The notes below the pieces were generated by a model that saw only the letters and a list, made by a program, of their open reading frames with translations, was not told the origin of the DNA and searched no databases. From the NCBI GenBank assembly GCA_027077795.1, contig JALWTT010000008.1:1-64000 (forward strand): a DNA stretch of 64,000 nucleotides, in the 5' to 3' direction. How positions within the stretch are numbered: position 1 is the stretch's first letter; each line of letters starts with the position of its first letter. This stretch comes from Thermotogaceae bacterium. GTDB lineage: Bacteria; Thermotogota; Thermotogae; Thermotogales; Thermotogaceae. Below are positions 11,929-30,272 of this stretch, piece by piece. Made by a program: the position numbers and the translations under genes.

Positions 11929-12107
11929 CTAATAATTGACTAAAAAAGGATAGGAAGATGGTCAGGTTCTGCCGGGAAACAGAGTTTAAGAACACGGAGA
12001 GCAGGGGGTACAAATAGCTTTAGATTCTCCCCTTGGCTTGAAAAAAACATGGAGGATCGAAATGGTCGAGTGCTACTTCGATGTCAAACTTGCAGGGAGG
12101 TAAAAGG

Positions 12108-12461
12108 ATGAAATACATAGAAGTTGAAAAAGTAGACGATGAACTCCTTGAGAAAATCGCCCAGCGAATACGGAAAGTGGTGAATCCTGTTAAGATCATT
12201 CTCTTTGGCTCTTACGCCTACGGAAACCCTTCCAAAGACAGTGATCTTGACATCTTAGTCGTTGTGGACAGCCTTGAATCGACCCGCAGGGAATTGAGAC
12301 TCAAAATCAGAAAAGCTTTAAGAGAGTTTTTGGTGCCAAAAGACATAATCGTGGTCACAAAAGAAGATATTGATGACTGGAGAGATGTTCCACAGGCGTT
12401 CATAACATCTGTTGTAAGAAAGGGAAGGGTGCTTTATGAAAGACAAGACTCAACTGATTAA
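12108..12461 (+). CDS. MNT-domain nucleotidyltransferase (MntA-like antitoxin)
   Basis: A 117-residue minimal nucleotidyltransferase. The catalytic pattern G-S-x10-D-x-D is intact: Gly34-Ser35, Asp46 and Asp48 in FGSYAYGNPSKDSDLDILVV. In MNT/HEPN toxin-antitoxin pairs this protein silences the HEPN RNase by AMPylating it. The start at 12108 follows GGAGGTAAAAGG. A HEPN frame overlaps its 3' end but is broken by stops, so the antitoxin has lost its partner. The 180 bases between this gene and the AlbA-type gene hold no convincing gene. Confidence 0.85.
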   Translation: MKYIEVEKVDDELLEKIAQRIRKVVNPVKIILFGSYAYGNPSKDSDLDILVVVDSLESTRRELRLKIRKALREFLVPKDIIVVTKEDIDDWRDVPQAFITSVVRKGRVLYERQDSTD

Positions 12462-12639
12462 AGCATGAATAGAGAAGGCAGAAAACGATCTAAGGGCTGC
12501 GAAGTATTTGATCGGTGTCAAACCCGATCCGCTGCTCGATGCAGTGTGTTTTCATGCACAGCAATGTGCTGAAAAGTATCTATAGGCTTTTTTAACCTAT
12601 AAAAAAGTTCAATTCCGATTTGAGGTAAAACACGATTAG
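12436..12639 (+). pseudogene. Broken HEPN-domain toxin
   Basis: The frame starts inside the MNT gene (ATG 12436) and reads MKDKTQLIKA, stop TGA (12466), then IEKAENDLRAAKYLI, DAVCFHAQQCAEKYL, stop TAG (12583), then AFLTYKKVQF and a final HD before TAG (12637). The AQQCAEKYL-x-AF stretch and the D-L-R-A-A helix are typical of HEPN RNase toxins of MNT/HEPN pairs. The TGA sits where a Trp is usual and the TAG where a Lys is usual, both one base change away. The toxin is therefore inactive. Confidence 0.8.
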
Positions 12640-13059
12640 CTACCTACGATGGAATGATTGGAAGCTCGGTGTGGGAATATGCAAGTATTAAAGGTTCATG
12701 ATGTGCAGATCAGAATAAATCACTGGGATAAAAAGAGCATCCGAGCACGACACGAAAAGTGATACGAAGGGTTTCTAAAGACTTTGGGAATTGGATTTAG
12801 GGAGTATCAAAGATTTTGCAAGATTTTCTTATCAGCATAAAATATAGCGATGATCGTAATAGTGGTGATGTGGAAAGACAACCGCGAAGGAAAAGCGATT
12901 GGTATAATTTACACAACAAGAAACTTAGAAGAAGATGAGGATTGATGGTTATGACACACAACAAGTTTATCTACAGTTCTGCTGCACTTTTATCAAATTC
13001 TCGTTTTCCTCGAATTTCAGGTACTTGAAGTACATTAGACGATAGAAGGTGAAGAGAAG
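12640..13059 (+). other. Degenerate spacer with likely BREX promoter
   Basis: About 420 bases without an intact gene; all frames are broken. It probably holds the rotted end of the HEPN gene and other scraps. An extended -10 element, TGGTATAAT (12900-12908), lies about 150 bases upstream of brxP and is the best promoter candidate for the BREX operon. No good -35 box is seen. The brxP ribosome site (GGTGAAGAGAAG) ends the region. Confidence 0.5.
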
Positions 13060-15438
13060 ATGTTCAAAGTAACTTGGGATAGGGACTCAAATGGTATTCT
13101 GTTAGTTGATAACAATAATTCTGAGATTATAACTCCGCCACGTCCTGTTTTCTTCGAAGAATTAGACCTCTTAGGTTTTAATAAGTTTTGGGACTATCCT
13201 AAAGTCCATAAGCCGTTACTCTGGGCTATTGGAAGAAGATATTACTATAAAGGGGAGCTTGTAGCAGAGGTTAAAGGAGGCAACATATTTGAGTCACCTG
13301 AAATAGTACTCACCGAGAAAGGACAAAATCTCAGGTTGAAACCAATAGATATTATGGAAGTGATTGAGAAAAATAAAGAAGCTTTATTTGTGTTGGAAAA
13401 TGAAGCATTGGACTTTATAGAGCACACATATAGAGTTTACAAAAAGAAAAAATGCTTATTTGCTGTGTCTTATAGTGGAGGAAAAGATTCACAGGTCGTA
13501 TTAGACCTTGTAACAAGAGTTATCCCTCCTGATGATTTAGTAGTCATCTTTTCAGATACCACAATGGAAATTTCTTATACTTATGAAAATGTAGAAAAAA
13601 CTAAAGAAGAATATGAAGAAAGATATCCTGGATTAAAATTTTATGTAGCAAAACCACCGAAACCGGCAATAGAGTTCTGGAAAGAATTTGGTCCGCCTAG
13701 TGTAAAACAAAGATGGTGTTGTACAGTTACAAAAACGGCACCGTTTCATAAAGTTCTAAAAATTTTTTTAAATAGAGAAAAAGGAGATAATGGTTCTTCT
13801 GTGAAAATATTAGTTTTCGAAGGTGTTAGAGCCGATGAAAGTGTTAAAAGATCAAAATATGGAAGAATAAGAAGAAACATTAAACATTTTTATCAGGTAA
13901 ATGCGGAAGTCATCTATAATTGGAACAGTACAGAAGTGTTTCTTTATTTATTCCTAAGAAGACTAAATATTAACAAGGGTTACCGATACGGGCTTGATAG
14001 AGTTGGTTGCAGTTTATGTCCTTTTGCATCATCGTGGAATGAGCATATTTTATATAGAATAGAGAGAGACACCATAACGAAATTTATGAATATAGTTTAT
14101 GAGTGTGGGAAATCTTTAGGCTTATCAGATGTTGAGATTACTGAATTTATAGCAGATGGGCAATGGAAAAAAAGAGCAGGAGGAAGGGGACTAGATAATA
14201 ATGGCACAACGCTTCTGTTATCTTTTGAGAAAAATAACATTGAGGCAGTATTAAAGAGACCGAGGGAGAATACGTTAGAATGGCTCAAGACAATTGGTAA
14301 CATACATTATATCGAGAGGGAAAATAATGTTGTTGGTGAAATAAGAATAGGGGATGAAACATTACCGTTTACTATAAGGAAGGAAAAGGAAAATGAGAAA
14401 TTTTGGATGAATACAGGAAAAAATACGGTTATTAGTGAGTTGATTAAAAAGGTGCTATATAAATCTACTTATTGCGTTCACTGTGAGGCTTGTGCCGAAG
14501 AATGTCCAACTGGAGCATTAACGATAAATTCTTTTGTTGAGATAAATAGTGATTTATGCATTCATTGTGGAAATTGCTTAAATTTTACTGAAAAAGGTTG
14601 CTTAGCTGCAAAATCTCTTATAACATATGGAGGTAAGAGAACTATGAGAAGAAATGGAAATAGAATTGCTACAAGTAAATTTCAAAATTTTGGACTGAGG
14701 AGAGATTGGTTAATCTTTTTCCTGCGCAATCTAAATGACTGGTTTGTAAAAACAAACCTTGGGAATCGCCAAGTAGAATCTTTAAAAACTTGGCTTCGAG
14801 AGAGTCATCTCTTGGATAAAAATAACAAACCTACCATAATTGCAAAATTGCTTTCAGAGATAATAAACGAGTGTGAATTACTGATATGGGAAATCATATG
14901 GATAAACTTATATTATAGTGAAAACCTAATCAAATGGTATCTGAACACTTTTGATTGGGGTGTAGATATCTCAGGAAGAGATTTAGTAACGAAACTATTG
15001 GAAGATGATAACAACGCTAAAGAAAAAACCGCAAAAAATGCAATTTCATCACTCTTTAATCTATTTGATTGTTCACCTATTGGATACGAATTAAAAATAG
15101 GAGTCATTGAGAAACGAGGTAGAGAAAGATATGTCAAAAAAATTGGCACAGACGGTATTCATCCATTGGTGGTTGCATACAGCCTTTATAAGGCAGCGGA
15201 ACATATTGAGAGAAGAGATTTCACCGTATCGGAATTGTACAGCAAGGAATTCAAAGGGGGACCATATAAATTATTTGGGATTTCAAGAGATAAATTGGAA
15301 AGAGTTTTAAGGGGTCTTCAGGAAGATAAAGAGCAAATCCTAAGGGTAGATTTAGTTGCAGACTTGGATAATATTTATTTAAGGGATGACCTTTCATCTT
15401 TAGATATAGTAAAAATTGCGGAGGAGAGGTTAAAATGA
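13060..15438 (+). CDS. brxP: BREX type 4 BrxP: PAPS-reductase-like protein with ferredoxin domain
   Basis: A 792-residue protein. After an N-terminal region of about 130 residues it has a PP-loop domain (SGGKDS, residues 139-144) of the PAPS reductase/DndC type, with a paired cysteine RWCCTVTK and a CxxC in VGCSLCPFA. Then comes a two-cluster ferredoxin-like domain: Cys472, 475, 478, 482 with classic spacing, and Cys500, 503, 506, 514 with a wider last gap. The last 200 residues are helical and may correspond to a DUF4007-type domain. A PAPS reductase-like gene in this order marks BREX type 4. By analogy with DndC it may activate DNA or a carrier for sulfur insertion; this is inference. Its stop overlaps the brxC start (ATGA). 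Base composition is A+T-rich compared with flanking core genes. Confidence 0.87.
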   Translation: MFKVTWDRDSNGILLVDNNNSEIITPPRPVFFEELDLLGFNKFWDYPKVHKPLLWAIGRRYYYKGELVAEVKGGNIFESPEIVLTEKGQNLRLKPIDIMEVIEKNKEALFVLENEALDFIEHTYRVYKKKKCLFAVSYSGGKDSQVVLDLVTRVIPPDDLVVIFSDTTMEISYTYENVEKTKEEYEERYPGLKFYVAKPPKPAIEFWKEFGPPSVKQRWCCTVTKTAPFHKVLKIFLNREKGDNGSSVKILVFEGVRADESVKRSKYGRIRRNIKHFYQVNAEVIYNWNSTEVFLYLFLRRLNINKGYRYGLDRVGCSLCPFASSWNEHILYRIERDTITKFMNIVYECGKSLGLSDVEITEFIADGQWKKRAGGRGLDNNGTTLLLSFEKNNIEAVLKRPRENTLEWLKTIGNIHYIERENNVVGEIRIGDETLPFTIRKEKENEKFWMNTGKNTVISELIKKVLYKSTYCVHCEACAEECPTGALTINSFVEINSDLCIHCGNCLNFTEKGCLAAKSLITYGGKRTMRRNGNRIATSKFQNFGLRRDWLIFFLRNLNDWFVKTNLGNRQVESLKTWLRESHLLDKNNKPTIIAKLLSEIINECELLIWEIIWINLYYSENLIKWYLNTFDWGVDISGRDLVTKLLEDDNNAKEKTAKNAISSLFNLFDCSPIGYELKIGVIEKRGRERYVKKIGTDGIHPLVVAYSLYKAAEHIERRDFTVSELYSKEFKGGPYKLFGISRDKLERVLRGLQEDKEQILRVDLVADLDNIYLRDDLSSLDIVKIAEERLK

Positions 15439-18400
15439 GGTATGAGGAAATTATAGGATTAAATGATTACTTTCAACCTGTTTATGATTTAGAAAACGAA
15501 ATTGGAACATACTGGAAACAATTTATTCCTAATGAAAGATTTTACAAAGTGTTATCAGAAACAATAAATTCACTTGAAAGTAGCAAACCTGAGGAAAGAA
15601 AATCAATATGGCTTCAGGGAGCCTATGGTACTGGAAAAAGTCATGCAACCGCTGTAGTGAAACATCTTCTTTTTGATAATCTTAATGAGATAAATGACTT
15701 CATTGAAAACCTTGAAGAGCAAGTGAAGTTTAAAATAAAAAACTTCCGTAAAAATAAGAGGGTGTTTCCGGTCGTTTTAAAGGGAACATCCTCAATCGTT
15801 GATAATAGAACCTTTGCTTTGATGATTGAAAGAGCGGTAAAAGGTGCATTAAAGAAAGAAAAAATTGAACTTACTCTTACTACAAAAACTGACTTTGATA
15901 AAATGATTACAAAATTAAAAAGTGATGAAATAAACTGGGAGAAAATTTTAAAAGGAACAGAATTAGAGGTTTATGGAACCAAAGAAGATATAATTTCCAA
16001 GCTTCAACAAGGGAACATCAATATATTAACCAAAATAGAAGGCGTACTTTCACAAAAAGGTATTCACTTCTCTACTGAAAATATTGCAAACTGGCTGGTA
16101 GAGGTAAGAAACGAACTAAAAAATAGAGGAATTGCGGATTATTTAGTAATTTATTGGGATGAATTCACTGGAGTTTTGGAACTGCCTAAATCTGGACTGT
16201 TATTGACAGAATTACAGAATATAGCAGAACTATCTGTCAATAAAGGTGTTTATTTGTTTGTTGTCGCTCATAGAAAACCCTACCGGACAAATATTTCAAG
16301 AGATGATGTAGAAAAAGTTCTTGGAAGATTTAAAGTATTGGATTATTCAATGGAACCTATAACTACTTACCATATTATCAACGCCGCTATTAAGAAAAAG
16401 GATATGAATAAGTTTATAGAGATTAGAGATAGATATATAAGCTCAGTGAAATCTCTGATAAAGGAAATTGCTGGAACTGAAGGGCCTCAAGTTCAAAAAT
16501 CCTTGGAGAACCTTTTCCCAATTCATCCTTATACTGCATATTTGGCAACTTTTATAGCAAGGCACATAGGTTCTACAGAAAGAAGTATATTTGAATTTCT
16601 TTATGGAAAGTCAGGTGTGGAAGTAAGTTTCAAGAAATTCATAAAAGAAAATCCGGGAGAGGATGGTAAGATATTTTTAACGGCGGACAATCTCTGGGAC
16701 TTTTTTTATGAAGAATTTGAAAGAATGGAAAGTGAAAAAGTTCATGCTGTGTTGGAGAAATATAAACTACATAAGGATATTTTAGAAAGAGAAGGGAGCG
16801 AATATTTGTCTGTGTTTAAAGGTCTTCTTCTTCTAAATCTTCTTTACAGATTTGTGGAAGTTGGGGAGTCTTCTCTTGTAATTCCTTCTGAGAAAAATAT
16901 AATAAATCTTTTTGCTGGTGCTATTGACCAGAAGGATTTAACCAGTATTCTCTCATTCATCGATGACAAGCAAATAATCAATAAAACACCAGACAACTTA
17001 TACCTAGTTACAAGCTCAGGTCTGCCCCCAAGAGAAGTTGAAACCGAAAAGAACAAGGTGAAAAGTGAGTATAGCACAATTGACAGAATACTCAATGAAA
17101 AACAGAAAAAAGAACTACAAGATACTATCAGTGCTTCCGTAAATAGAGCCATCGAATTCGCAATAATGGATGCTAGTTTAAGTGAACATTTAATAAGAAA
17201 AAAAATAGAAAAAGCCTTTAAAAAGAATTACACTATCCACTTATGCTTGTTTTTAGGAAAAAGTGAGCAAGAATTACAACAAATAAAAAACATTTTAAAG
17301 GAGATCTCTAATGATGATGACCTCAAAAATATAATCTTTGTTGTATCTGAAGTAATCTTAGACGACAAGAAGTTTAATAGATTCATAGAATACAAAGCAA
17401 GGGCCATAGTTGCAGACAAACATAATTATCCAGAAGAAAGAAACATAAACGAGGAGTACGCAGAAAAGATTATTGATGACTGGGTTAATCAAGTAAAATC
17501 TGGATATATTGAGTGGTTCTTGCAGAATGAGACTGGTAAAGAATTAATGAGTGAGTTTAGCAGAAAGATAAACGAAAAATTATCCAAAAAGATATTTATC
17601 TACGGTTTAGAAAATATAGATGGGACTCAAAAGAACAGAAACATTTGGACGTACAAACGATCTAAAACTTCTGCTGAAATATTCTTATTTGCCAACAGTA
17701 GAACGGATATAGAAGAAAAGACGTCTAAAGGACCAGAAAGATATTTACGGGAAATTATCAAAGATAACAATGGAGAATATATTGTAGATACAAATCTAAA
17801 GATAAAAGATGATGTTTTCGAGGATCATCCTCTAAAAAAGATGTATTTAGAAATAAGAAAAGTCTTTGAAAAAGAAAGAGATCACGGAGTATTTAATTTG
17901 GGAGATACTCTAAGATTCTTAGCCAGACCACCTTATGGATTGTACCCCAATATGGTTAATATGTCAGCAGTTGGCTTTTTAATGAGGGAATATGTCGGTA
18001 AACTTTTTGAGGCAGGAACAGGAATACCAATTCAAAAAGAGGTGATGAGAGATAAAATATTAACTTTGTTTGATTACTGGGAAAGAGGAACGCATAAGGA
18101 TAGGGGAAAATTGGAAGTTCGTTTTGGAACAGAAGATGAAGAAAAACTTATTGAGATCCTGAAAGATCTATTTAAACTTGAGGATGTTAGAAGTTTGAAT
18201 GATGCAAGATGGAAAATAAGGGAATGGGTTAAAAAACAAGGATTTCCAGTATGGGTATTCAAATTCGTAGAAAATATAAATGAAAGTACTAAAAACGCTA
18301 TAGATGCTATTTTTGAACTCGTTCAATCAATCGATAGAGAGCTTACATATGAAAGGATAAGGGATTACCTAAATACTATAGAGCGCGTAAAGTACGACCT

Positions 18401-18914
18401 CGACATTTTAATAGACCGAGAGAATCCGAAGGAATTGTTTAAAAAGTGGTTGAAAAGTATTGAAGGAGTTGAAATTTCACCTGGGGATACAGAAGAAGTT
18501 ATAGATTATATTAAAAGAAATATGCAAGAAGAAGTTGCTTCTTGGACAGAATATAGAGTTAGAGAGAAAGTTAAAGATTGGTACACAGAGAAACTCAAGA
18601 AAAGTCAAGCACAACTTGAAAAACAAATTGAAGAATTGAAACAAACTAAGGGGATTACCAAGGGAATTAATGAAATAATTGCACAGGATACTGTTTCTCA
18701 ATATACTAAATCTCCTCCTACCTCTACCTCTTTCGTACCTAAGGAAAAGATTGAAAATGTTAAAAAACGAATTTGGAGAAGTTCTGAAAAGAACGTCAAA
18801 GAAATCCTAATTAAACTTATAGATGAATTAAAAGATAAACACCCAGATATTGTAAAGATAATTGAAAAATATCTGGAGGGAGTCCAATGGGGTAATAAAA
18901 TTCCATTCTCTTGA
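15435..18914 (+). CDS. brxC: BREX ATPase BrxC (PglY-like)
   Basis: A 1159-residue P-loop ATPase, the expected size of BrxC/PglY. Walker A is GAYGTGKS (residues 62-69) and Walker B is YLVIYWDEF with Asp242-Glu243. An arginine-rich segment VAHRKPYR follows Walker B. The C-terminal third is strongly charged with coiled-coil character (EKLKKSQAQLEKQIEELK). BrxC is a core part of all BREX systems and is needed for phage exclusion and host DNA marking; its exact biochemical task is not settled. It overlaps brxP by four bases and pglZ by about 50, so the operon is translated as a unit. Confidence 0.87.
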   Translation: MRYEEIIGLNDYFQPVYDLENEIGTYWKQFIPNERFYKVLSETINSLESSKPEERKSIWLQGAYGTGKSHATAVVKHLLFDNLNEINDFIENLEEQVKFKIKNFRKNKRVFPVVLKGTSSIVDNRTFALMIERAVKGALKKEKIELTLTTKTDFDKMITKLKSDEINWEKILKGTELEVYGTKEDIISKLQQGNINILTKIEGVLSQKGIHFSTENIANWLVEVRNELKNRGIADYLVIYWDEFTGVLELPKSGLLLTELQNIAELSVNKGVYLFVVAHRKPYRTNISRDDVEKVLGRFKVLDYSMEPITTYHIINAAIKKKDMNKFIEIRDRYISSVKSLIKEIAGTEGPQVQKSLENLFPIHPYTAYLATFIARHIGSTERSIFEFLYGKSGVEVSFKKFIKENPGEDGKIFLTADNLWDFFYEEFERMESEKVHAVLEKYKLHKDILEREGSEYLSVFKGLLLLNLLYRFVEVGESSLVIPSEKNIINLFAGAIDQKDLTSILSFIDDKQIINKTPDNLYLVTSSGLPPREVETEKNKVKSEYSTIDRILNEKQKKELQDTISASVNRAIEFAIMDASLSEHLIRKKIEKAFKKNYTIHLCLFLGKSEQELQQIKNILKEISNDDDLKNIIFVVSEVILDDKKFNRFIEYKARAIVADKHNYPEERNINEEYAEKIIDDWVNQVKSGYIEWFLQNETGKELMSEFSRKINEKLSKKIFIYGLENIDGTQKNRNIWTYKRSKTSAEIFLFANSRTDIEEKTSKGPERYLREIIKDNNGEYIVDTNLKIKDDVFEDHPLKKMYLEIRKVFEKERDHGVFNLGDTLRFLARPPYGLYPNMVNMSAVGFLMREYVGKLFEAGTGIPIQKEVMRDKILTLFDYWERGTHKDRGKLEVRFGTEDEEKLIEILKDLFKLEDVRSLNDARWKIREWVKKQGFPVWVFKFVENINESTKNAIDAIFELVQSIDRELTYERIRDYLNTIERVKYDLDILIDRENPKELFKKWLKSIEGVEISPGDTEEVIDYIKRNMQEEVASWTEYRVREKVKDWYTEKLKKSQAQLEKQIEELKQTKGITKGINEIIAQDTVSQYTKSPPTSTSFVPKEKIENVKKRIWRSSEKNVKEILIKLIDELKDKHPDIVKIIEKYLEGVQWGNKIPFS

Positions 18915-21267
18915 GGAGTTATATGTCACGATAGAACAGGATAAACACTCTGAAAGGGTCTCTGACAGAAGGTTTCCAGTAAGATTTATCTTTGTCAATT
19001 CTTTCGAAGAATTAAAAGAAATTATTAAATATCTGATTAAAAATTGCAATGTTGAAAGTAGAGAAACAACGGAACTTTTATCTGATAAAAATCGGTGGCT
19101 AACAACAGATGAGATAATAAATTGGGTAAAGGAAATATCTAACAATACTGTTGTGGTGCTACTCTCAGAATTTCTAAGATTCCAAGGTAAAGAAGATTTC
19201 TATATAACCTTAAAAAGCCTAACCGAAATTGAAAAGCAAAATAATATAAGAATTTATATACCCTTAGTTGGTTTGTGGGAAAGATTTGAACAAGAGTTCT
19301 GGGCTAACTTTTATAGAAAGGAAGAATGGGCACCAGTTTGGAAGTTAGAAACCTCTTCTCGAAAAATAACTATATATCAAATAAATTTTGACTTAGATTA
19401 TAAGAATATCCTCTTAGAAAACCTTGCAGTAGTATCTACTACTGAGGAATGGCTAAGTGTTTGGAAAAGGAAAAATGTGAAAGGTATTTTATCCCTGTCT
19501 AAATCTTTGTCATATTTTTATAAAAATTTTCTCCCAGATCACGCATTTGAGTTAAGGGAGATTTCAAATCAAAAGGAATTTCTTGAAGAAATTTTTGAAA
19601 TCAAAGTTCCGGTAAGGTTTAAAGACGATGAAGTAGAGTTTTGGAACAAACTTGTAAGGGATGTAGACAGATATAATGAAAAAGGCTTAACCATAGAAAA
19701 CATATTTTTGAGACATTTTAATTTTAGAAGTTTAGAAAAATTAGAACCCAAAGACTTTCTCACTCTCTATTTGCAAACTAATGAGGGTTATGAAAGATGG
19801 TTAATCAGAAACGTTTTCTTAGCTTTAGATATGTTTAAATCTTCCTACTTATACAAGTGCTTCGAAAGCTTGGAAGAATTAAAAGAAGATAATTTGATAG
19901 AAAAGTTATGGTTGGAAATATTTCATCTACCTTCGGAGACACTAACTAAAGACGTTTTTTCCGAAAGAAGAGAATTTTTAAATCTCATACATAGGAACCT
20001 CAACATCTCAGCTCAATTTGTAGAAAGAAAACTCGCTAATGAGCTTGATAATATAAAAAGTTATTCATTAAAGAAAAAGCTCGAATATTTGACCAATATA
20101 ACATTCACTGAAAGGAAGTACATTATTTCTGAATTGAGAAATATTGATGATATTCAAGAAATTATTCCTGATCTAAAAAAAGTTTATCCAGAGTTGGCTT
20201 ATTACTTGGATTGGAATTTAATAAAGCCAGACAATGAAGTAGATGAATGGATACTTGAATATTTTAAAGATTACAATTATTCGAAAATAAAGCATGTCAA
20301 ATCACCAAAAATAGAAGAAATAATTAATAGCAAAAACAGGAATAAGTCTACTTTTTCAAATTGGTATTATTCCTTGCTTAAAGCAAGAATAGAAGAAGAT
20401 ATTAAATATGTGTGGATAGATGGGTTAGGAGCTGAGTGGTTTCCGTTAATAGTTCATCTGCTTAGTAAATATGGTAAAGAAAAAGGAAAAATCGTAAAAA
20501 ATAAGTTGCTTACTCGGGTAAATTTGCCAAGCATTACGGAATGCAATCGATACGAATTTGAAAAAATTGAAGATTTAGATAAGTATATTCATAATCAAAA
20601 TCCATATAAGTATCCAGATGATTTAATCAACGAAATTGAACTTATAGAAAAAATTATAAAGAAAATCGTTGATTTACCTAATGATAGTGTATGCATAGTT
20701 TCAGATCACGGATTTAGTTTTTTGTGCTTGAAAGATTTTGGTAATTTCAAAAGACTTGACCTACCAAATACTGAACATGAGGGAAGATGTATGTGGATTG
20801 ATGAAGTAGATTATAAAGATGACGAATATTTTATTGTGTGGAACGTTGATGAAGGAAATTGTAGGAGTAAAAAAGTCCTTGTAGCATTGAAACACGTTTC
20901 CTTAAATAACACACCTTACAGAGAAGTTCATGGAGGTGCCACCCCCGAGGAAGTTTTAGTACCTTGTATTGTAATAGAAACTGAAAAAGATAAAACTAAA
21001 TACGAAATCGAGCTTGCTAATTCTGAGGTTTGGATAACTAACCCTGTAATTCAACTCAAAATATACCCACAACCTCTGCATATTCCTGAAGTCTTTCTCA
21101 ATGAACTGCCACTGAGTATATCATATGAAACAGAGAATAACATCTACACGATAGATCTAAAAGGCTTAAAAGTCGGTACGTACACGATAGTGTTGAAGAT
21201 AGGAGATACTAATTATCAAATAAAGGTAACCATTAGAGGAGGATTTAAAGAAAGGGATCTTCTATGA
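18862..21267 (+). CDS. pglZ: BREX protein PglZ (alkaline-phosphatase superfamily)
   Basis: About 800 residues, with the PglZ domain in the C-terminal half: the metal-site Asp in WIDGLGAEWFP (Asp520), SDHGFSFL (Asp615, His616) and HGGATPEEVLVPCI (His690). PglZ is found in every BREX type; its phosphatase-like fold suggests phosphoester or nucleic-acid chemistry. The start is unclear. The frame opens at TTG (18862) with a weak ribosome site. A strong site GGAGGGAG ends four bases before an ATG at 18887, but that ATG is in the wrong frame and hits TAA after two codons. One more G in the GGGG run at 18889-18892 would put it in frame. The 3' end overlaps brxL by four bases. Confidence 0.87.
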   Translation: MKNIWRESNGVIKFHSLEELYVTIEQDKHSERVSDRRFPVRFIFVNSFEELKEIIKYLIKNCNVESRETTELLSDKNRWLTTDEIINWVKEISNNTVVVLLSEFLRFQGKEDFYITLKSLTEIEKQNNIRIYIPLVGLWERFEQEFWANFYRKEEWAPVWKLETSSRKITIYQINFDLDYKNILLENLAVVSTTEEWLSVWKRKNVKGILSLSKSLSYFYKNFLPDHAFELREISNQKEFLEEIFEIKVPVRFKDDEVEFWNKLVRDVDRYNEKGLTIENIFLRHFNFRSLEKLEPKDFLTLYLQTNEGYERWLIRNVFLALDMFKSSYLYKCFESLEELKEDNLIEKLWLEIFHLPSETLTKDVFSERREFLNLIHRNLNISAQFVERKLANELDNIKSYSLKKKLEYLTNITFTERKYIISELRNIDDIQEIIPDLKKVYPELAYYLDWNLIKPDNEVDEWILEYFKDYNYSKIKHVKSPKIEEIINSKNRNKSTFSNWYYSLLKARIEEDIKYVWIDGLGAEWFPLIVHLLSKYGKEKGKIVKNKLLTRVNLPSITECNRYEFEKIEDLDKYIHNQNPYKYPDDLINEIELIEKIIKKIVDLPNDSVCIVSDHGFSFLCLKDFGNFKRLDLPNTEHEGRCMWIDEVDYKDDEYFIVWNVDEGNCRSKKVLVALKHVSLNNTPYREVHGGATPEEVLVPCIVIETEKDKTKYEIELANSEVWITNPVIQLKIYPQPLHIPEVFLNELPLSISYETENNIYTIDLKGLKVGTYTIVLKIGDTNYQIKVTIRGGFKERDLL

Positions 21268-22685
21268 ATGCATTAGATGAAAAGATAAAAAAAGTATTTC
21301 TAGAAGAATCTGTGTTTAAAAGTCCAAAACAATATGGAATATTTTCTGGATATAACCTTCCATCTTTTGTTAAAGATTGGATATTAAGGAAGTTTACAGA
21401 TGAATTTGGAAACTTAAATATAGATGCTTTGAAACTTTTTTTGAATACTCATATTGCACATAAAGAAAGCAAAATAAAAGGAACTCTTTTAAATGACTTA
21501 AAAGAGGTTACGTTACTTGCAAGAATTATAGTAGAGCCAGATATAAAGTCAGGAATATTGAGATTCTCTATACCTGATATCGGCATAAAACTTAACGAAG
21601 GCCGAATTCCTACTTATGTTGCTAAGAAGTATCCGGAATTAAAAGGAGGGGAAGTTTGGGGCGTCGTTAAATTAGTCTATATTCCACCTGAGGGAAAACA
21701 AAAAGGAACAATAGAAATAGTAGACTATAAACCATTTAAACCTTATGAGGTGGATATAGAATACTTCAGGGAGAAACGAAAGAAATTCACTTTAGAAGAA
21801 TGGATAGATCTTTTAATACGTTCTATGGAATACAACCCCGATGGATTCGAATCGCTTTCTCAGAAGTTGCTATTTCTAGCCCGACTTCTCGTTTTCGTTG
21901 AACCAAACTTGAATATGATAGAACTTGCGCCTAAAGGAACTGGCAAGTCTTATACATTTAATAATCTAAGTAAATACGGTTGGGTTATAAGTGGTGGTGT
22001 TGTCTCGAGGGCAAGGTTACTTTACGATGTGGCCCGCTCAATTCCTGGTATAATAACCCGCTATGATTTTGTGGTTTTAGACGAAATCGAGACTATAAAA
22101 TTTACAGACTCAAGCGAATTACAAGGAGCCTTAAAAAATTATCTAGAATCGGGAAATTTCTCTGTGGCAAACTATAGAGGAGTTTCTTCGGCTGGATTTA
22201 TGTTACTGGGAAATATCCCATTAACAAAGGATAAGAGACCATTACATAACAAATATTTCGTTAATTTGCCAAAATTCTTTCAGGATTCTGCCCTGTTAGA
22301 TAGATTTCATGGTTTCATTGAAGGATGGAAATTACCTAGAATGCGAGAAGATTTAAAGGTTAGAGGATACGCACTGAATGTTGAATATTTCTCCGAAATA
22401 TTACACAAATTAAGGATAACCCCAGATTTTGCTAAGGTAGTAGATTCTTTGTTAGATATACCTAGGAACGCAGATACAAGAGATACCAGAGCAATAGTAA
22501 AGATATGTACAGGGTATCTGAAATTGCTTTTCCCCCATGTACATGAGAAAGATGACATTAATAAAAAAGAGTTTGAAACATTTTGCTTAAAACCAGCGGT
22601 AGAGATGAGAAAAATCATCAAGAGGCAAATAAGTCTAATTGATAGTGAGTTTAATGATACTTTACCCGTGATTAAAATCAGATAA
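21264..22685 (+). CDS. brxL: BREX AAA+ protein BrxL, short form
   Basis: A 473-residue AAA+ ATPase with Walker A APKGTGKSY (about residues 222-230), Walker B FVVLDEIE (Asp273-Glu274) and the BrxL-type segment LLGNIPL...FQDSALLDRFHGFIEGW. Many BrxL proteins are 650-700 residues with a Lon-like C-terminal domain. This one stops soon after RKIIKRQISLIDSEF, so the Lon-like part is absent. No frameshifted remainder is seen downstream, so it appears to be a natural short version. In BREX, BrxL acts as a DNA-bound AAA+ machine for phage restriction. It ends the operon. Confidence 0.85.
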   Translation: MNALDEKIKKVFLEESVFKSPKQYGIFSGYNLPSFVKDWILRKFTDEFGNLNIDALKLFLNTHIAHKESKIKGTLLNDLKEVTLLARIIVEPDIKSGILRFSIPDIGIKLNEGRIPTYVAKKYPELKGGEVWGVVKLVYIPPEGKQKGTIEIVDYKPFKPYEVDIEYFREKRKKFTLEEWIDLLIRSMEYNPDGFESLSQKLLFLARLLVFVEPNLNMIELAPKGTGKSYTFNNLSKYGWVISGGVVSRARLLYDVARSIPGIITRYDFVVLDEIETIKFTDSSELQGALKNYLESGNFSVANYRGVSSAGFMLLGNIPLTKDKRPLHNKYFVNLPKFFQDSALLDRFHGFIEGWKLPRMREDLKVRGYALNVEYFSEILHKLRITPDFAKVVDSLLDIPRNADTRDTRAIVKICTGYLKLLFPHVHEKDDINKKEFETFCLKPAVEMRKIIKRQISLIDSEFNDTLPVIKIR

Positions 22686-23022
22686 AAAGATAGAAGCATC
22701 GCTCAGTGGACGGATATAAAGCCATCTTTGCTCTGTACAATTTCAGTTTAACATAGTTTAATGGTGGTGATTGCTAAGAACAAACTTTTCAGGAGTTATC
22801 ACACATAACCTCAAGTGATAAAGCTGCAGAAGAATTATTGAAAGAAAAAGGAATCATCCTGGAAAATCGAAAAGTCATTTGCGCTTTCTTACCTTCCATG
22901 GTTGGATCTTCACAGCTGCGTGAACGCTTCTTCATTGAGAACGAACCTAAAATGGCACTTTCATCTGGAGAGCTGAAATGGTACCCAAGATTCGAACCAC
23001 CTAAAGTTCATTCATTTTTAAT
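22686..23022 (+). other. Post-BREX region with an unrecognised open fragment
   Basis: No intact gene. An open frame from about 22758 to 23053 reads ...SSDKAAEELLKEKGIILENRK and then RERFFIENEP, protein-like at first, but its last part runs antisense through the IS3 remnant. It has no convincing start or ribosome site. I do not recognise it; it is probably a scrap of an older gene cut by the insertion sequence. Confidence 0.4.
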
Positions 23023-23586: not shown

Positions 23587-23620
23587 TTAAATCAAATGTG
23601 TGAGAAAGAATGTGATCCCT

Positions 23621-25279
23621 ATGAAAAGACTCCCGATAGGTGTGAGTAATTTTGAAGAGATGATAAATAGTAATTATTATTATGTCGATAAAACACTCCT
23701 GATTAAGGAAGTGTACGGTTTGTCAGGAAAGATAAAGCTCATAACTCGCCCAAGGAGATTTGGTAAAACTCTCAACATGGACATGATAAAAGAGTTCTAT
23801 TCACTTGATGGAAAAGACCTGTTTGATGGGCTTGAGATAATGAGTGAGAAAAATTTCGTCAAAGATCATTACCATAAACATCCTGTGCTTTTTGTGTCGT
23901 TCAAAAATATCAAGCGACCAAATTGGGAAAAAGCTGAAGAGGCCCTGAAAAAGCTTTTGTATAGATTGATAATTGATCACACCGATGATTCGAGAATACT
24001 GAATATGTACGAAAGAGAGAATGCGCCCTACGAAGATGCATTGTTCGACATCACGGAGATTCTGTACAAAAGGCATGAAAAGAAGGTTGTTTTGCTTATG
24101 GACGAATACGATGTGCCGATAGAAGCAGCATACACATATCAATATGAGGATCCGCGATATTACAAAATGATGGTTGCGTTCATGAGAGACCTTCTGACCG
24201 GAGCTTTGAAAGACAACCCCTACCTTGAATTCGCGATCCTCACAGGAGTATACAGAGTCGCCAAGGAATCTATATTCTCAGGACTTAACAACGTAGCCAC
24301 ATACACGATATTCGATAAGATCATGCAGACTCATTATGGATTCACAGAGGATGAAGTGTTCGAAATGCTGAGACATTATGGTTTGGAAAATGATATTTCT
24401 GCGGTCAGGGATTGGTACAACGGATATGTATTCGGAGGTGTTGAGGGGATATACAATCCATGGAGCGTTATCTACTACATTCATTACAGAACAACAGGAC
24501 ACTCCGTTGAGGAATCACTTCAGCCCTACTGGATAAACACATCGAGCAACGATTTGATAATAAAGCAGATAGAATCCAATCCTTTTCTCAAGGAAGATTT
24601 GGACAAACTCTTGTCTAAGCAGGAACTCATCGTCTCGATAGACCCGTTCCTATCACTGAGAGAAATAGATCAGAACCCATCGGGAGTATGGACACTCCTT
24701 GCAAGTGCTGGGTATCTGAACGCGTATCAGCTGAGTGTGGATGAATACAGTGTGAAGCTTCCGAACAAAGAGATAGAGAAATTCTACAAGAAGGTTGTAT
24801 CCAACTGGCTTGAGAGGAAGACGAAAGTATCGCTTTACAACATGTTTAAATCTCTGAGAGAAGCTGTTAGGAATGGAAATGTTGAAGGATTTGAGAGGCT
24901 TCTTGAGAGGTATTTAACGAGCTCGCTTAGTTATTTCGACATAGGATACGATGATGCAGAGCGTGTATACAAAGCGTTTGTGTTGGGAATGCTCTCACTT
25001 GCGACGAATGGGTATGTTGTAGAGACAGAGACTGAGAGTGGATACGGTAGGGTGGATGTTGCCATCTATCCAAAAGACAAAAGGTATGGAGAATATGCGA
25101 TAGTGATGGAGCTGAAGAAAGCAAATTCTGGAGACAAGCTTGAAGAGACAGCGAATGAAGCGATCCGTCAGATAGAAGAGAAGGGATACAGCGATAGATA
25201 CGAAAGACTCGGCTTTGAAGTTATACCGATCGGAATAGCTTTTCACGGGAAGAAAGCATACTTGAAACATGAGAGGTGA
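23621..25279 (+). CDS. AAA-ATPase-like protein with PD-(D/E)XK nuclease-like domain
   Basis: A 552-residue protein of the AAA-ATPase_like/DUF1703 group, frequent in Thermotogota, Bacteroidota and Clostridia. It begins KRLPIGVSNFEEMI with YYYVDKTLLI, then Walker A RPRRFGKTLNM and Walker B VVLLMDEYDVP. The tail carries a PD-(D/E)XK core: ESGYGRVDVAIY with the metal Asp and IVMELKKA with the E-x-K pair. The role is unknown; the layout suggests NTP-driven nucleic acid recognition or cleavage. The ATG at 23621 fits the usual family N terminus; a GTG at 23600 is also possible. Both have weak ribosome sites. Base composition is nearer the core genome than the BREX genes. Confidence 0.82.
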   Translation: MKRLPIGVSNFEEMINSNYYYVDKTLLIKEVYGLSGKIKLITRPRRFGKTLNMDMIKEFYSLDGKDLFDGLEIMSEKNFVKDHYHKHPVLFVSFKNIKRPNWEKAEEALKKLLYRLIIDHTDDSRILNMYERENAPYEDALFDITEILYKRHEKKVVLLMDEYDVPIEAAYTYQYEDPRYYKMMVAFMRDLLTGALKDNPYLEFAILTGVYRVAKESIFSGLNNVATYTIFDKIMQTHYGFTEDEVFEMLRHYGLENDISAVRDWYNGYVFGGVEGIYNPWSVIYYIHYRTTGHSVEESLQPYWINTSSNDLIIKQIESNPFLKEDLDKLLSKQELIVSIDPFLSLREIDQNPSGVWTLLASAGYLNAYQLSVDEYSVKLPNKEIEKFYKKVVSNWLERKTKVSLYNMFKSLREAVRNGNVEGFERLLERYLTSSLSYFDIGYDDAERVYKAFVLGMLSLATNGYVVETETESGYGRVDVAIYPKDKRYGEYAIVMELKKANSGDKLEETANEAIRQIEEKGYSDRYERLGFEVIPIGIAFHGKKAYLKHER

Positions 25280-25746: not shown

Positions 25747-26415
25747 GATGGTTATTTCAAAAAACCAATTGATACTATAGATGATTATTGGCCTAATACT
25801 TATAAGAAGCTAAAGGAGTACTTCTTCAATTGCCCATGGTACGAGGTTTACGATTTTATAGAGTTCATAGCTAATAGTTATCCGAATGTCAGAATTAACA
25901 AAGAATTCATAAAGGCCTGTAATATTATTTTTAAAGAGGAATTATCTGCATACCGCTTCGTCGGCGATAAGATCGTGCGGATAACCTCGGAAGAGGAAAT
26001 TTCAGAAATAGAAGAGGCTTTGAAGAAATCCGGACCCTTAAGCAATGTCCATGAACACTTGAAAAGAGCCTTAGAGCTGCTGGCTGATAGAAAATCTCCT
26101 GATTACAGAAACTCCATAAAAGAATCCATAAGCGCGGTGGAAGCTCTTTGTAAACTAATAACGGGAGACAAGAGTGCAACATTAGGAAAAGCGTTAGAGA
26201 AGATGGAGGGCAAAATTAAACTGCACCCAGCTTTAAAAAAAGCTTTCATCAGTTTATATGGGTATACAAGTGATGCTGATGGTATACGCCACGCTTTGCT
26301 CGAAGAGTCTAATCTTGACTTCGAAGATGCGAAATTTATGCTGATTGTTTGCCCTGCTTTTATCAATTATCTTGTTGAGAAAGTCTCAAAGTCAGGTATT
26401 AAAATAGGCAGCTAA
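25747..26415 (+). pseudogene. AbiJ-like abortive-infection protein, 5' end damaged
   Basis: The frame reads DGYFKKPIDTIDDYW, NTYKKLKEYFFNCPWYEVYD, then SAYRFVGDKIVRITSEEEIS, HLKRALELLADRKSPDYRNS, IKESISAVEALCKLITG, KALEKMEGKIKLHPALKKAF and YGYTSDADGIRHALL. This is the pattern of AbiJ N-terminal-domain-4 proteins common in defence islands. The family starts near "FSERxGY"; here a TGA (25744-25746) sits where that Arg codon would be, and no ATG lies in frame. The only in-frame GTG (25975) would leave the C-terminal 146 residues. It is either a remnant or a shortened protein. Confidence 0.68.
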
Positions 26416-29438: not shown

Positions 29439-30272
29439 GTGAAAACCGTCAAACCCCTGATAATATCCGCAAGTAGGAGAACTGATATTCCGGCGTTTTA
29501 CATGGAATGGTTTCTAAGAGAGTGGGAGAAAGGTTGGACTGAGTGGGTCAACCCTTTCAACCCTAAGCAAAAAAAGATCGTCTCTTTTGAGGATACACAG
29601 CTGGTCGTTTTTTGGAGCAAGTACCCCATAGGAGTAGCTGAAAACCTCAGTAGGATAAACTTCGATTTTCTCCTCCTCTACACCGTCAACGATTATCCAG
29701 AACTCGAACCGAATGTCCCAAACCTTGGAAAGAGAACAGAACTTTTCAGGGAGATCTCGAGGAAAATCGGGCGGGAAAAGGTCATTTGGAGATTTGACCC
29801 AATAATTTTTTTAAACGACACTTCGGTTAAAGACGTTGTTGAGAAATTCAGGAGAATTTCAAGAGATCTGGAGGGATACACAGAGAGAGTTATAACGAGT
29901 GTGATGACTCCCTACAAAAAGGTCGTTCGCAGGATGAGAAAGGCCGGTTTCCCTCCCAGAGAGCCGTCGGAGAAGGAGATAATCGATCTTGGCAGGAATT
30001 TGAAAGAGATAGCAAGCAACCGTGGCATGGAAATACAAACGTGCGCTGATAGGTTTTGGAAACTGTTTGAATCCGTAAGTGTTAGGAAGGGAGCGTGTAT
30101 AGATCCAGAATACATAAAGAATGCTTTCAGTGGTAATATTAAACTAATTGAAGGGGTGAAGAAACTTAAAAAAGACAGGGGGCAGAGAAGCCTCTGTGGT
30201 TGTGTTGAAAGCGTTGACATAGGAAGATACAAAACATGCAAGTTTAATTGCACATATTGCTATGCCGTGTGA
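29439..30272 (+). CDS. DUF1848 family protein
   Basis: A 277-residue protein starting at GTG behind GGTGAT. It has the DUF1848 opening IISASRRTDIPAFYMEW and WVNPFNPKQK, a middle VFWSKYPIG...NDYPELEPNVP and WRFDPII, and a C-terminal cysteine cluster CGCVESVDIGRYKTC with FNCTYCYA. Five or more cysteines here suggest an iron-sulfur site. The fold is related to radical SAM/spore photolyase-like TIM barrels by published family notes, but no function is established. It directly follows the EamA gene. Confidence 0.78.
   Translation: MKTVKPLIISASRRTDIPAFYMEWFLREWEKGWTEWVNPFNPKQKKIVSFEDTQLVVFWSKYPIGVAENLSRINFDFLLLYTVNDYPELEPNVPNLGKRTELFREISRKIGREKVIWRFDPIIFLNDTSVKDVVEKFRRISRDLEGYTERVITSVMTPYKKVVRRMRKAGFPPREPSEKEIIDLGRNLKEIASNRGMEIQTCADRFWKLFESVSVRKGACIDPEYIKNAFSGNIKLIEGVKKLKKDRGQRSLCGCVESVDIGRYKTCKFNCTYCYAV

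What the first reader, a model, noticed from the sequence alone, without database searches (positions are those of the whole stretch)
13060..22685. Intact BREX type 4 operon without a methyltransferase
Four overlapping genes encode a PAPS-reductase-like protein, BrxC ATPase, PglZ phosphatase-like protein and BrxL AAA+ protein. All key motifs are intact (PP-loop, Walker A/B, PglZ metal site). This matches the published type 4 BREX order. There is no PglX-type methyltransferase here or nearby, so self-marking must differ from common BREX. Recent reports, recalled and not checked, link type 4 BREX with phosphorothioate DNA. A copy in a hyper- or moderately thermophilic lineage could be valuable for biochemistry.
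Basis: partly seen in the sequence, partly recalled or inferred. Interest (0 to 1): 0.75.

Follow-up and report, generated by a model that had tools for sequence, protein, structure and literature searches.

The report
BREX type 4 with swappable specificity cassette
This is a known kind of anti-phage defence operon (BREX type 4, which marks its own DNA with sulfur instead of methyl groups); comparison with relatives shows that the middle of its sulfur-writing protein, BrxP, is exchanged as a cassette between otherwise near-identical operons, so it is probably the part that chooses which DNA sequence is marked.

Summary
Four overlapping genes at 13060-22685 are brxP-brxC-pglZ-brxL of BREX type 4, with very strong family matches and invariant catalytic motifs; no PglX is detected in the genome. 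The host is Thermotogaceae-like. One qualifier: relative to its kin, the ribosome-site-linked ATG of pglZ is out of frame by one base, so pglZ is open only from an upstream TTG. New here: in operons whose BrxC is 79-97% identical, BrxP residues ~215-690 usually fall to 35-50%, while BrxP 1-120 and 700-792 stay at 80-97%. Synonymous sites are saturated only inside that segment, junctions are sharp, trees conflict (AU p=3e-5), and the pattern recurs in four unrelated clades. The cassette holds a DndC-like specificity loop, an alpha+beta domain, a ferredoxin and two helix-turn-helix units of the SspB-like part. I infer that BrxP is the HsdS-like specificity subunit of type 4 BREX. Exchange is shown; the role in PT sequence choice is inferred and needs a swap experiment. 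I found no report of it, but the key preprint (Yuan et al.) was not readable here.

The parts
13060..15438 (+). brxP: PAPS-reductase/ATP-pyrophosphatase domain + alpha/beta domain + 2x[4Fe-4S] ferredoxin + SspB-like (DUF4007) domain; predicted PT writer
   Evidence: PADLOC BrxP 971 bits; Pfam PAPS_reduct 87.4, Fer4 34.8, DUF4007 27.2 vs cut-off 27; Foldseek top hits SspB 6LB9/6JUF, then APS reductase, TtuA, LarE
13060..13700 (+). constant 5' part of brxP (residues 1 to ~214), PP-loop included
   Evidence: 84-89% identical to L012, L014 and L022 over residues 1-205
13701..15130 (+). exchangeable cassette of brxP (residues ~215-690): DndC-like loop at its left edge, alpha+beta domain, ferredoxin, HTH1 and wHTH2
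   Evidence: Identity falls to 29-60% with pS mostly saturated; sharp junctions at ~13,700 and ~15,110-15,150; tree conflict
15151..15438 (+). constant 3' part of brxP (last winged helix, residues ~698-792)
   Evidence: 86-95% identical in kin; junction lies between predicted wHTH2 and wHTH3
15435..18914 (+). brxC AAA+ ATPase
   Evidence: PADLOC BrxC 2062 bits; Walker A/B invariant
18555..18911 (+). variable C-terminal tail of BrxC (residues 1041-1159)
   Evidence: 44% vs 81-86% for the rest in window-L022 and 38% vs 67-73% in window-L007; 88% in window-L012
18862..21267 (+). pglZ (BREX-4 PglZ) ORF, open from TTG 18862
   Evidence: NF033445 653.5 bits vs cut-off 140; D520, D615-H616, H690 invariant
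18874..18889 (+). ribosome-binding-site-like GGAGGGAG and the kin-type pglZ ATG (18887-18889), out of frame here by one base
21264..22685 (+). brxL, short type-4 form
   Evidence: TIGR02688 490 bits vs 329; aligned to solved BrxL 8EMC over 26-464 of 679
13046..22691 (+). extent of the operon shared with unrelated genomes: homology starts 14 bp before brxP and ends 6 bp after brxL

Best explanation
This is a BREX type 4 (brxPCZL) defence operon in a Thermotogaceae bacterium, acquired as a compact unit. BrxP takes activated sulfur, probably from the housekeeping SufS/SufU of the suf operon ~43 kb away, and with the BrxC ATPase places phosphorothioates at a short sequence in host DNA; PglZ and BrxL then act against DNA lacking the mark. 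BrxP is also the specificity subunit: its centre (residues ~215-690) is an exchangeable cassette between a constant catalytic N-terminus and a constant C-terminal winged helix, as with TRD exchange in HsdS. Shown: family membership, cassette exchange with fixed ends, recurrence in four clades, fold-level match of the C-terminal part to SspB. Inferred: PT writing by this copy, that the cassette sets the motif, the sulfur donor, and phage exclusion.
For: Membership. Exchange: window vs L012 pS is 0.76-0.82 in BrxP 206-690 against 0.35 (BrxP 1-205), 0.19 (BrxP 700-792), 0.35 (BrxC 1-1040), 0.26-0.51 (PglZ) and 0.48 (BrxL). Junctions are visible in 50-nt steps. The BrxP 215-690 tree joins window+L007 (100/100) and AU rejects window+L012 (p 3e-5); the BrxC tree joins window+L012+L015+L022 (100/100) and AU rejects window+L007 (p 0.004). 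Replication in Bacteroidales: L009 vs L059 has BrxC 96%, BrxP 1-120 97%, 215-690 45%, 700-790 94%; also L066-L082 and L061-L063. Same-allele control L009-L011 is uniform at 96-99% along BrxP. DNA contact: the cassette contains two of three HTH units and SspB is the top structural match; its left edge, FGPPSVKQRWC, matches by position the DndC specificity loop GYPAPTRSFRW of PMC12193691. SufS: 511.7 bits vs cut-off 475.
Against: No PT chemistry or motif can be measured here. The cassette also contains catalytic Cys and the ferredoxin, so variation is not confined to DNA-reading surfaces. The most variable part (331-460) has no known DNA-binding fold. Evasion of phage inhibitors could also drive such variation. 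The pglZ start looks impaired in this copy.
Confidence: 0.7

Rival explanations
1. The BrxP cassette varies because phage proteins bind and inhibit BrxP; exchange escapes the inhibitors and does not change the DNA motif.
For: Variation covers non-HTH domains too, including 331-460, the most variable stretch. A phage inhibitor of another BREX subunit, OrbA acting on BrxC, is listed in the library (PMC11580459).
Against: The replaced segment coincides with most of the DNA-facing parts (DndC-like loop, two HTH units), and its right end is the same in four clades. The constant last winged helix and PP-loop are presumably as exposed to inhibitors (inference).
Confidence: 0.2
2. This copy is defective: pglZ is not translated properly, so the operon modifies DNA at most and does not exclude phage.
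For: The kin-type ATG with its GGAGG is out of frame by one base, and the upstream TTG 18862 has no clear ribosome site.
Against: The 801-aa frame is otherwise open with invariant active-site residues; the genome is a 16-contig draft, so a one-base assembly error is possible; translation from TTG through coupling to brxC is possible.
Confidence: 0.25
3. The mosaic is an artefact of chimeric assembly or misalignment.
For: Several comparison loci are from metagenome assemblies, and L007 and L015 are contigs that hold little beyond the operon.
Against: The pattern occurs in a single-contig genome (G009), a 38.9-kb archaeal contig (L012) and four clades with the same right junction; nucleotide alignment shows the same drop.
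Confidence: 0.03
4. Self-marking is by a methyltransferase elsewhere in the genome, and BrxP has another role.
For: A weak Eco57I-domain match on contig C6 (28 bits), in a stretch where no long methyltransferase frame was seen.
Against: No PglX match genome-wide; PT production by brxPCZL is published (PMC11931770 introduction).
Confidence: 0.03

Closest known systems
BREX type 4 (brxPCZL)
   Same: All four genes, order, PglZ-4 and BrxP families, DUF4007 fused to the PAPS reductase, no PglX
   Different: No linked cysteine desulfurase (present in 56% of type 4 loci per PMC12839542); kin-type pglZ start out of frame. The cassette structure of brxP is not described in the papers I could read, but it is a property of the family, not of this copy alone
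Ssp (SspABCD) PT system
   Same: BrxC matches SspC and BrxP matches SspD profiles; the C-terminal half of BrxP matches SspB structures 6LB9/6JUF
   Different: SspB and SspD are separate proteins there; here PglZ and BrxL are present; SspE/SspFGH were not sought
Dnd (DndCDE)
   Same: PAPS-reductase subunit with a loop before RWC at the position of the DndC specificity loop (PMC12193691)
   Different: BrxC AAA+ and SspB-like HTHs replace DndD and DndE
Type I restriction-modification HsdS and BREX PglX target recognition domains
   Same: A segment is exchanged while the rest of the operon stays the same (works like)
   Different: BrxP is itself the predicted sulfur-transfer enzyme; not homologous to HsdS

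Membership tests
BREX type 4 | brxP-brxC-pglZ-brxL in this order | tested here: met
BREX type 4 | BrxP: PAPS reductase with ferredoxin and DUF4007 | tested here: met
   (DUF4007 27.2 bits vs cut-off 27)
BREX type 4 | Type-4 PglZ | tested here: met
   NF033445 653.5 bits vs 140
BREX type 4 | BrxL | tested here: met
   TIGR02688 490 vs 329
BREX type 4 | No PglX methyltransferase | tested here: met
   No NF033452 match in G000; the model rings in 9 of 14 controls
BREX type 4 | Functional start of every gene | tested here: inconclusive
   pglZ ATG out of frame relative to kin; TTG alternative
BREX type 4 | Phosphorothioate in host DNA | not testable with these tools
   needs LC-MS/MS or PT-seq
BREX type 4 | Phage exclusion | not testable with these tools
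   needs phage assays
BREX type 4 | Cysteine desulfurase linked (56% of loci, optional, not defining) | tested here: not met
   No desulfurase gene beside the operon; the DndA model finds only SufS (C8:65898-67081) strongly
Ssp system | Separate sspB, sspC, sspD genes | tested here: not met
   BrxP is fused; BrxC and BrxP profiles beat SspC and SspD by far
Type I HsdS-like specificity subunit (works like) | Exchangeable segment between constant ends, flanking genes unchanged | tested here: met
Type I HsdS-like specificity subunit (works like) | Segment sets the DNA motif | not testable with these tools
   needs a cassette swap and PT mapping

The most novel reading that the evidence does not exclude
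BrxP is the sequence-specificity subunit of type 4 BREX. A ~480-residue internal cassette with near-fixed ends (PAPS-reductase loop to second winged helix) is exchanged between lineages, bacteria and archaea included, and each exchange gives the same defence machinery a new phosphorothioate motif.
Probability: 0.65. Interest if true: 0.65.

Novelty: new member of a known kind. Interest (0 to 1): 0.5.

Why it matters
How PT systems choose their motif is largely open: a DndC loop is proposed for Dnd, and DndE or SspB in other papers. Natural operon pairs that are near-identical except for one BrxP cassette give ready-made swap constructs with known junctions, so the question becomes directly testable and PT specificity could be reprogrammed for DNA labelling. 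A thermophile source may give stable proteins for structure work.

Tried and rejected
(1) Frataxin-like domain in BrxP: phmmer hit CyaY over 377-438 at E 0.0094, but an AlphaFold model of 340-470 (pLDDT 84.6) found no frataxin among the listed PDB matches and only weak PsbP/DcrB-like and other folds, in line with the published Mog1p/PsbP-like call; dropped. (2) Positive selection alone as cause of the variable segment: rejected, because synonymous sites are saturated only there. (3) Plasmid and phage collections: only distant relatives. (4) Viral contigs: one BrxL relative at 58%. (5) Pfam PglZ (PF08665) and DUF4007 genome scans missed the operon's own genes, so those negatives were not used. 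(7) Yuan et al. 2024 (PMC12914056) is not held, so I cannot exclude that it reports BrxP variation. (8) Over all 402 pairs the cassette still correlates with BrxC (Spearman ~0.70, against 0.90 for PglZ and BrxL); the decoupling is clear mainly among close pairs, which are few and not independent.

Full report
Observation. PADLOC profiles match full length: BrxP 971 bits, BrxC 2062, PglZ 1391, BrxL 783. NCBIfam gives BREX_PglZ_4 at 653.5 bits (cut-off 140) and BrxL TIGR02688 at 490 (cut-off 329). Catalytic motifs are invariant among type 4 homologues. BrxP holds a PAPS-reductase domain, eight invariant ferredoxin cysteines and a DUF4007 end. No PglX is found genome-wide with a model that rings in 9 of 14 controls.

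A flaw in 'intact'. In kin L012 and L015 pglZ starts GGAGGGAGTTTA-ATG-GGA-GTA; the window has GGAGGGAGTCCA-ATG-GGG-TAA, one base shorter. The ATG is thus out of frame, the brxC stop used by kin is gone, and pglZ is open only from TTG 18862. A one-base assembly error or a real change are both possible.

Host and sulfur. G002, in the same genus as the window's genome, holds a contig identical over 3,081 bp to a record titled Thermotogaceae bacterium S143_61_esom. There is no linked desulfurase; the only strong candidate found is SufS in a suf operon at C8:65898-67081 (511.7 bits vs cut-off 475), followed by SufU. That it feeds BrxP is inference; replacement by housekeeping desulfurases is discussed in PMC12839542.

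What is known. Type 4 is described as the PT-based BREX with a PAPS reductase in place of the methyltransferase, DUF4007 often fused, and desulfurase in 56% of loci (PMC12839542 section 34). PMC11931770 lists brxPCZL as the third PT-synthesis family and cites antiviral activity.

The operon as a mobile unit. Homology to unrelated genomes spans 13046-22691 only, 14 bp before brxP to 6 bp after brxL, at 84-87% DNA identity over most of its length with G009 (same family), L012 (Archaeoglobi contig whose neighbours are archaeal: AhbA/AhbB-like siroheme decarboxylase, NcsA, XerA_Arch) and L015. L007 and L015 contigs hold little beyond the operon, so their stated hosts are unsure.

The mosaic. Within these close operons BrxP alone breaks the pattern. 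Window vs L012: BrxC 1-1040 88-90%, PglZ 82-86%, BrxL 89%, BrxP 1-205 89%, BrxP 700-792 89%, but BrxP 331-460 37% and 511-690 36%. Synonymous divergence is saturated (pS 0.76-0.82) only inside 206-690, against 0.19-0.51 elsewhere. That points to replacement of DNA rather than fast protein evolution on an unchanged genealogy. In 50-nt steps the drop lies at ~13,700 and the recovery at ~15,110-15,150, in both L012 and L022. The cassette of the window is closest to that of L007 (67%), whose BrxC is only 67% identical. The BrxP 215-690 tree joins window and L007 (100/100) and AU rejects window+L012 (p 3.2e-5). The BrxC tree joins window, L012, L015 and L022 (100/100) and AU rejects window+L007 (p 0.004).

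Replication. In Bacteroidales, L009 vs L059 gives BrxC 96%, BrxP 1-120 97%, 215-690 45%, 700-790 94%. L066-L082 (BrxC 87%, cassette 46%, flanks 82 and 89%) and L061-L063 (79%, 44%, 80 and 84%) are two further clades. Of 13 pairs with BrxC at or above 79%, 11 have residues 515-690 at 35-45%; the two exceptions are same-allele pairs, L009-L011 (96%) and L012-L015 (78%). These pairs are not independent: four clades are the honest count. Some alleles are shared across distant backbones (L012/L015 with the Methanosphaera plasmid L039: about 62% in 515-690 at BrxC 38%). The left end is less fixed than the right: ~215 in the thermophile set, ~120 in L009-L059.

What the cassette contains. AlphaFold (mean pLDDT 70.6, eight sequences) gives a PAPS-reductase fold, an alpha+beta domain (384-451), a poorly modelled ferredoxin stretch and helix-turn-helix units. 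The right junction falls between the second and third units. The best PDB matches are SspB (6LB9, 6JUF), then APS reductase, TtuA and LarE. The left junction falls at FGPPS-VKQ-RWCC. This matches by position the DndC loop GYPAPTRSFRW, proposed and mutationally tested as the specificity loop of Dnd (PMC12193691). The window reads VKQ where most of the other type 4 proteins read R-x-H, N-x-H or D-x-H, and no other protein in the sample shares it.

Mechanism. BrxP with BrxC writes PT; the constant N-terminal catalytic half and constant last winged helix probably dock to partners; the cassette reads DNA. PglZ and BrxL act downstream. Exchange of the cassette would change motif without touching the rest, as in HsdS. 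Exchange is shown; motif choice is inferred. The main rival is escape from phage inhibitors. A second, minor variable segment is the BrxC tail 1041-1159, which varies independently.

Novelty. The operon is a further member of BREX type 4. The cassette structure of BrxP was not found in the papers I could search; the closest statements are that DUF4007-like wHTHs evolve fast (PMC12839542) and that the DndE interface varies (PMC10853773). The main experimental preprint on type 4 was not readable, so novelty is provisional.

Noticed in passing
window 18555-18911: BrxC C-terminal tail is a second variable segment: 44% identical to G009 and 38% to L007 but 88% to L012, so it varies independently of the BrxP cassette.
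   Followed up: partly
L022 11240-11270 (G009:C1): brxP of the single-contig relative G009 is frameshifted in a poly-A run at residue ~696, at the cassette's right end.
   Followed up: partly
window 25975-26415: Matches only the C-terminal half of PADLOC PDC-S32 (model 146-282 of 285): probably a truncated defence gene.
   Followed up: no
window 29439-30272: DUF1848 protein (276 bits) that also matches PADLOC RTasDUF1848 of DRT systems.
   Followed up: no
window 12081-12620: Nucleotidyltransferase (MNT type) followed by what reads by eye as a HEPN-like partner broken by stops: remnant toxin-antitoxin pair beside the operon.
   Followed up: no
window 23600-25279: AAA-ATPase_like plus PD-(D/E)XK protein downstream; between it and brxL lie short broken coding pieces.
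   Followed up: no
L008 and L085 (G106 contigs C78 and C76): One Peptostreptococcaceae MAG carries two type 4 brxP loci that are 44% identical.
   Followed up: no
L039: A complete BREX type 4 operon on the 174-kb plasmid pNP174 of the archaeon Methanosphaera sp. ISO3-F5.
   Followed up: partly
L067 13366-13926: XerA-type archaeal recombinase (partial match to the model) immediately upstream of brxP in the Archaeoglobi copy.
   Followed up: no
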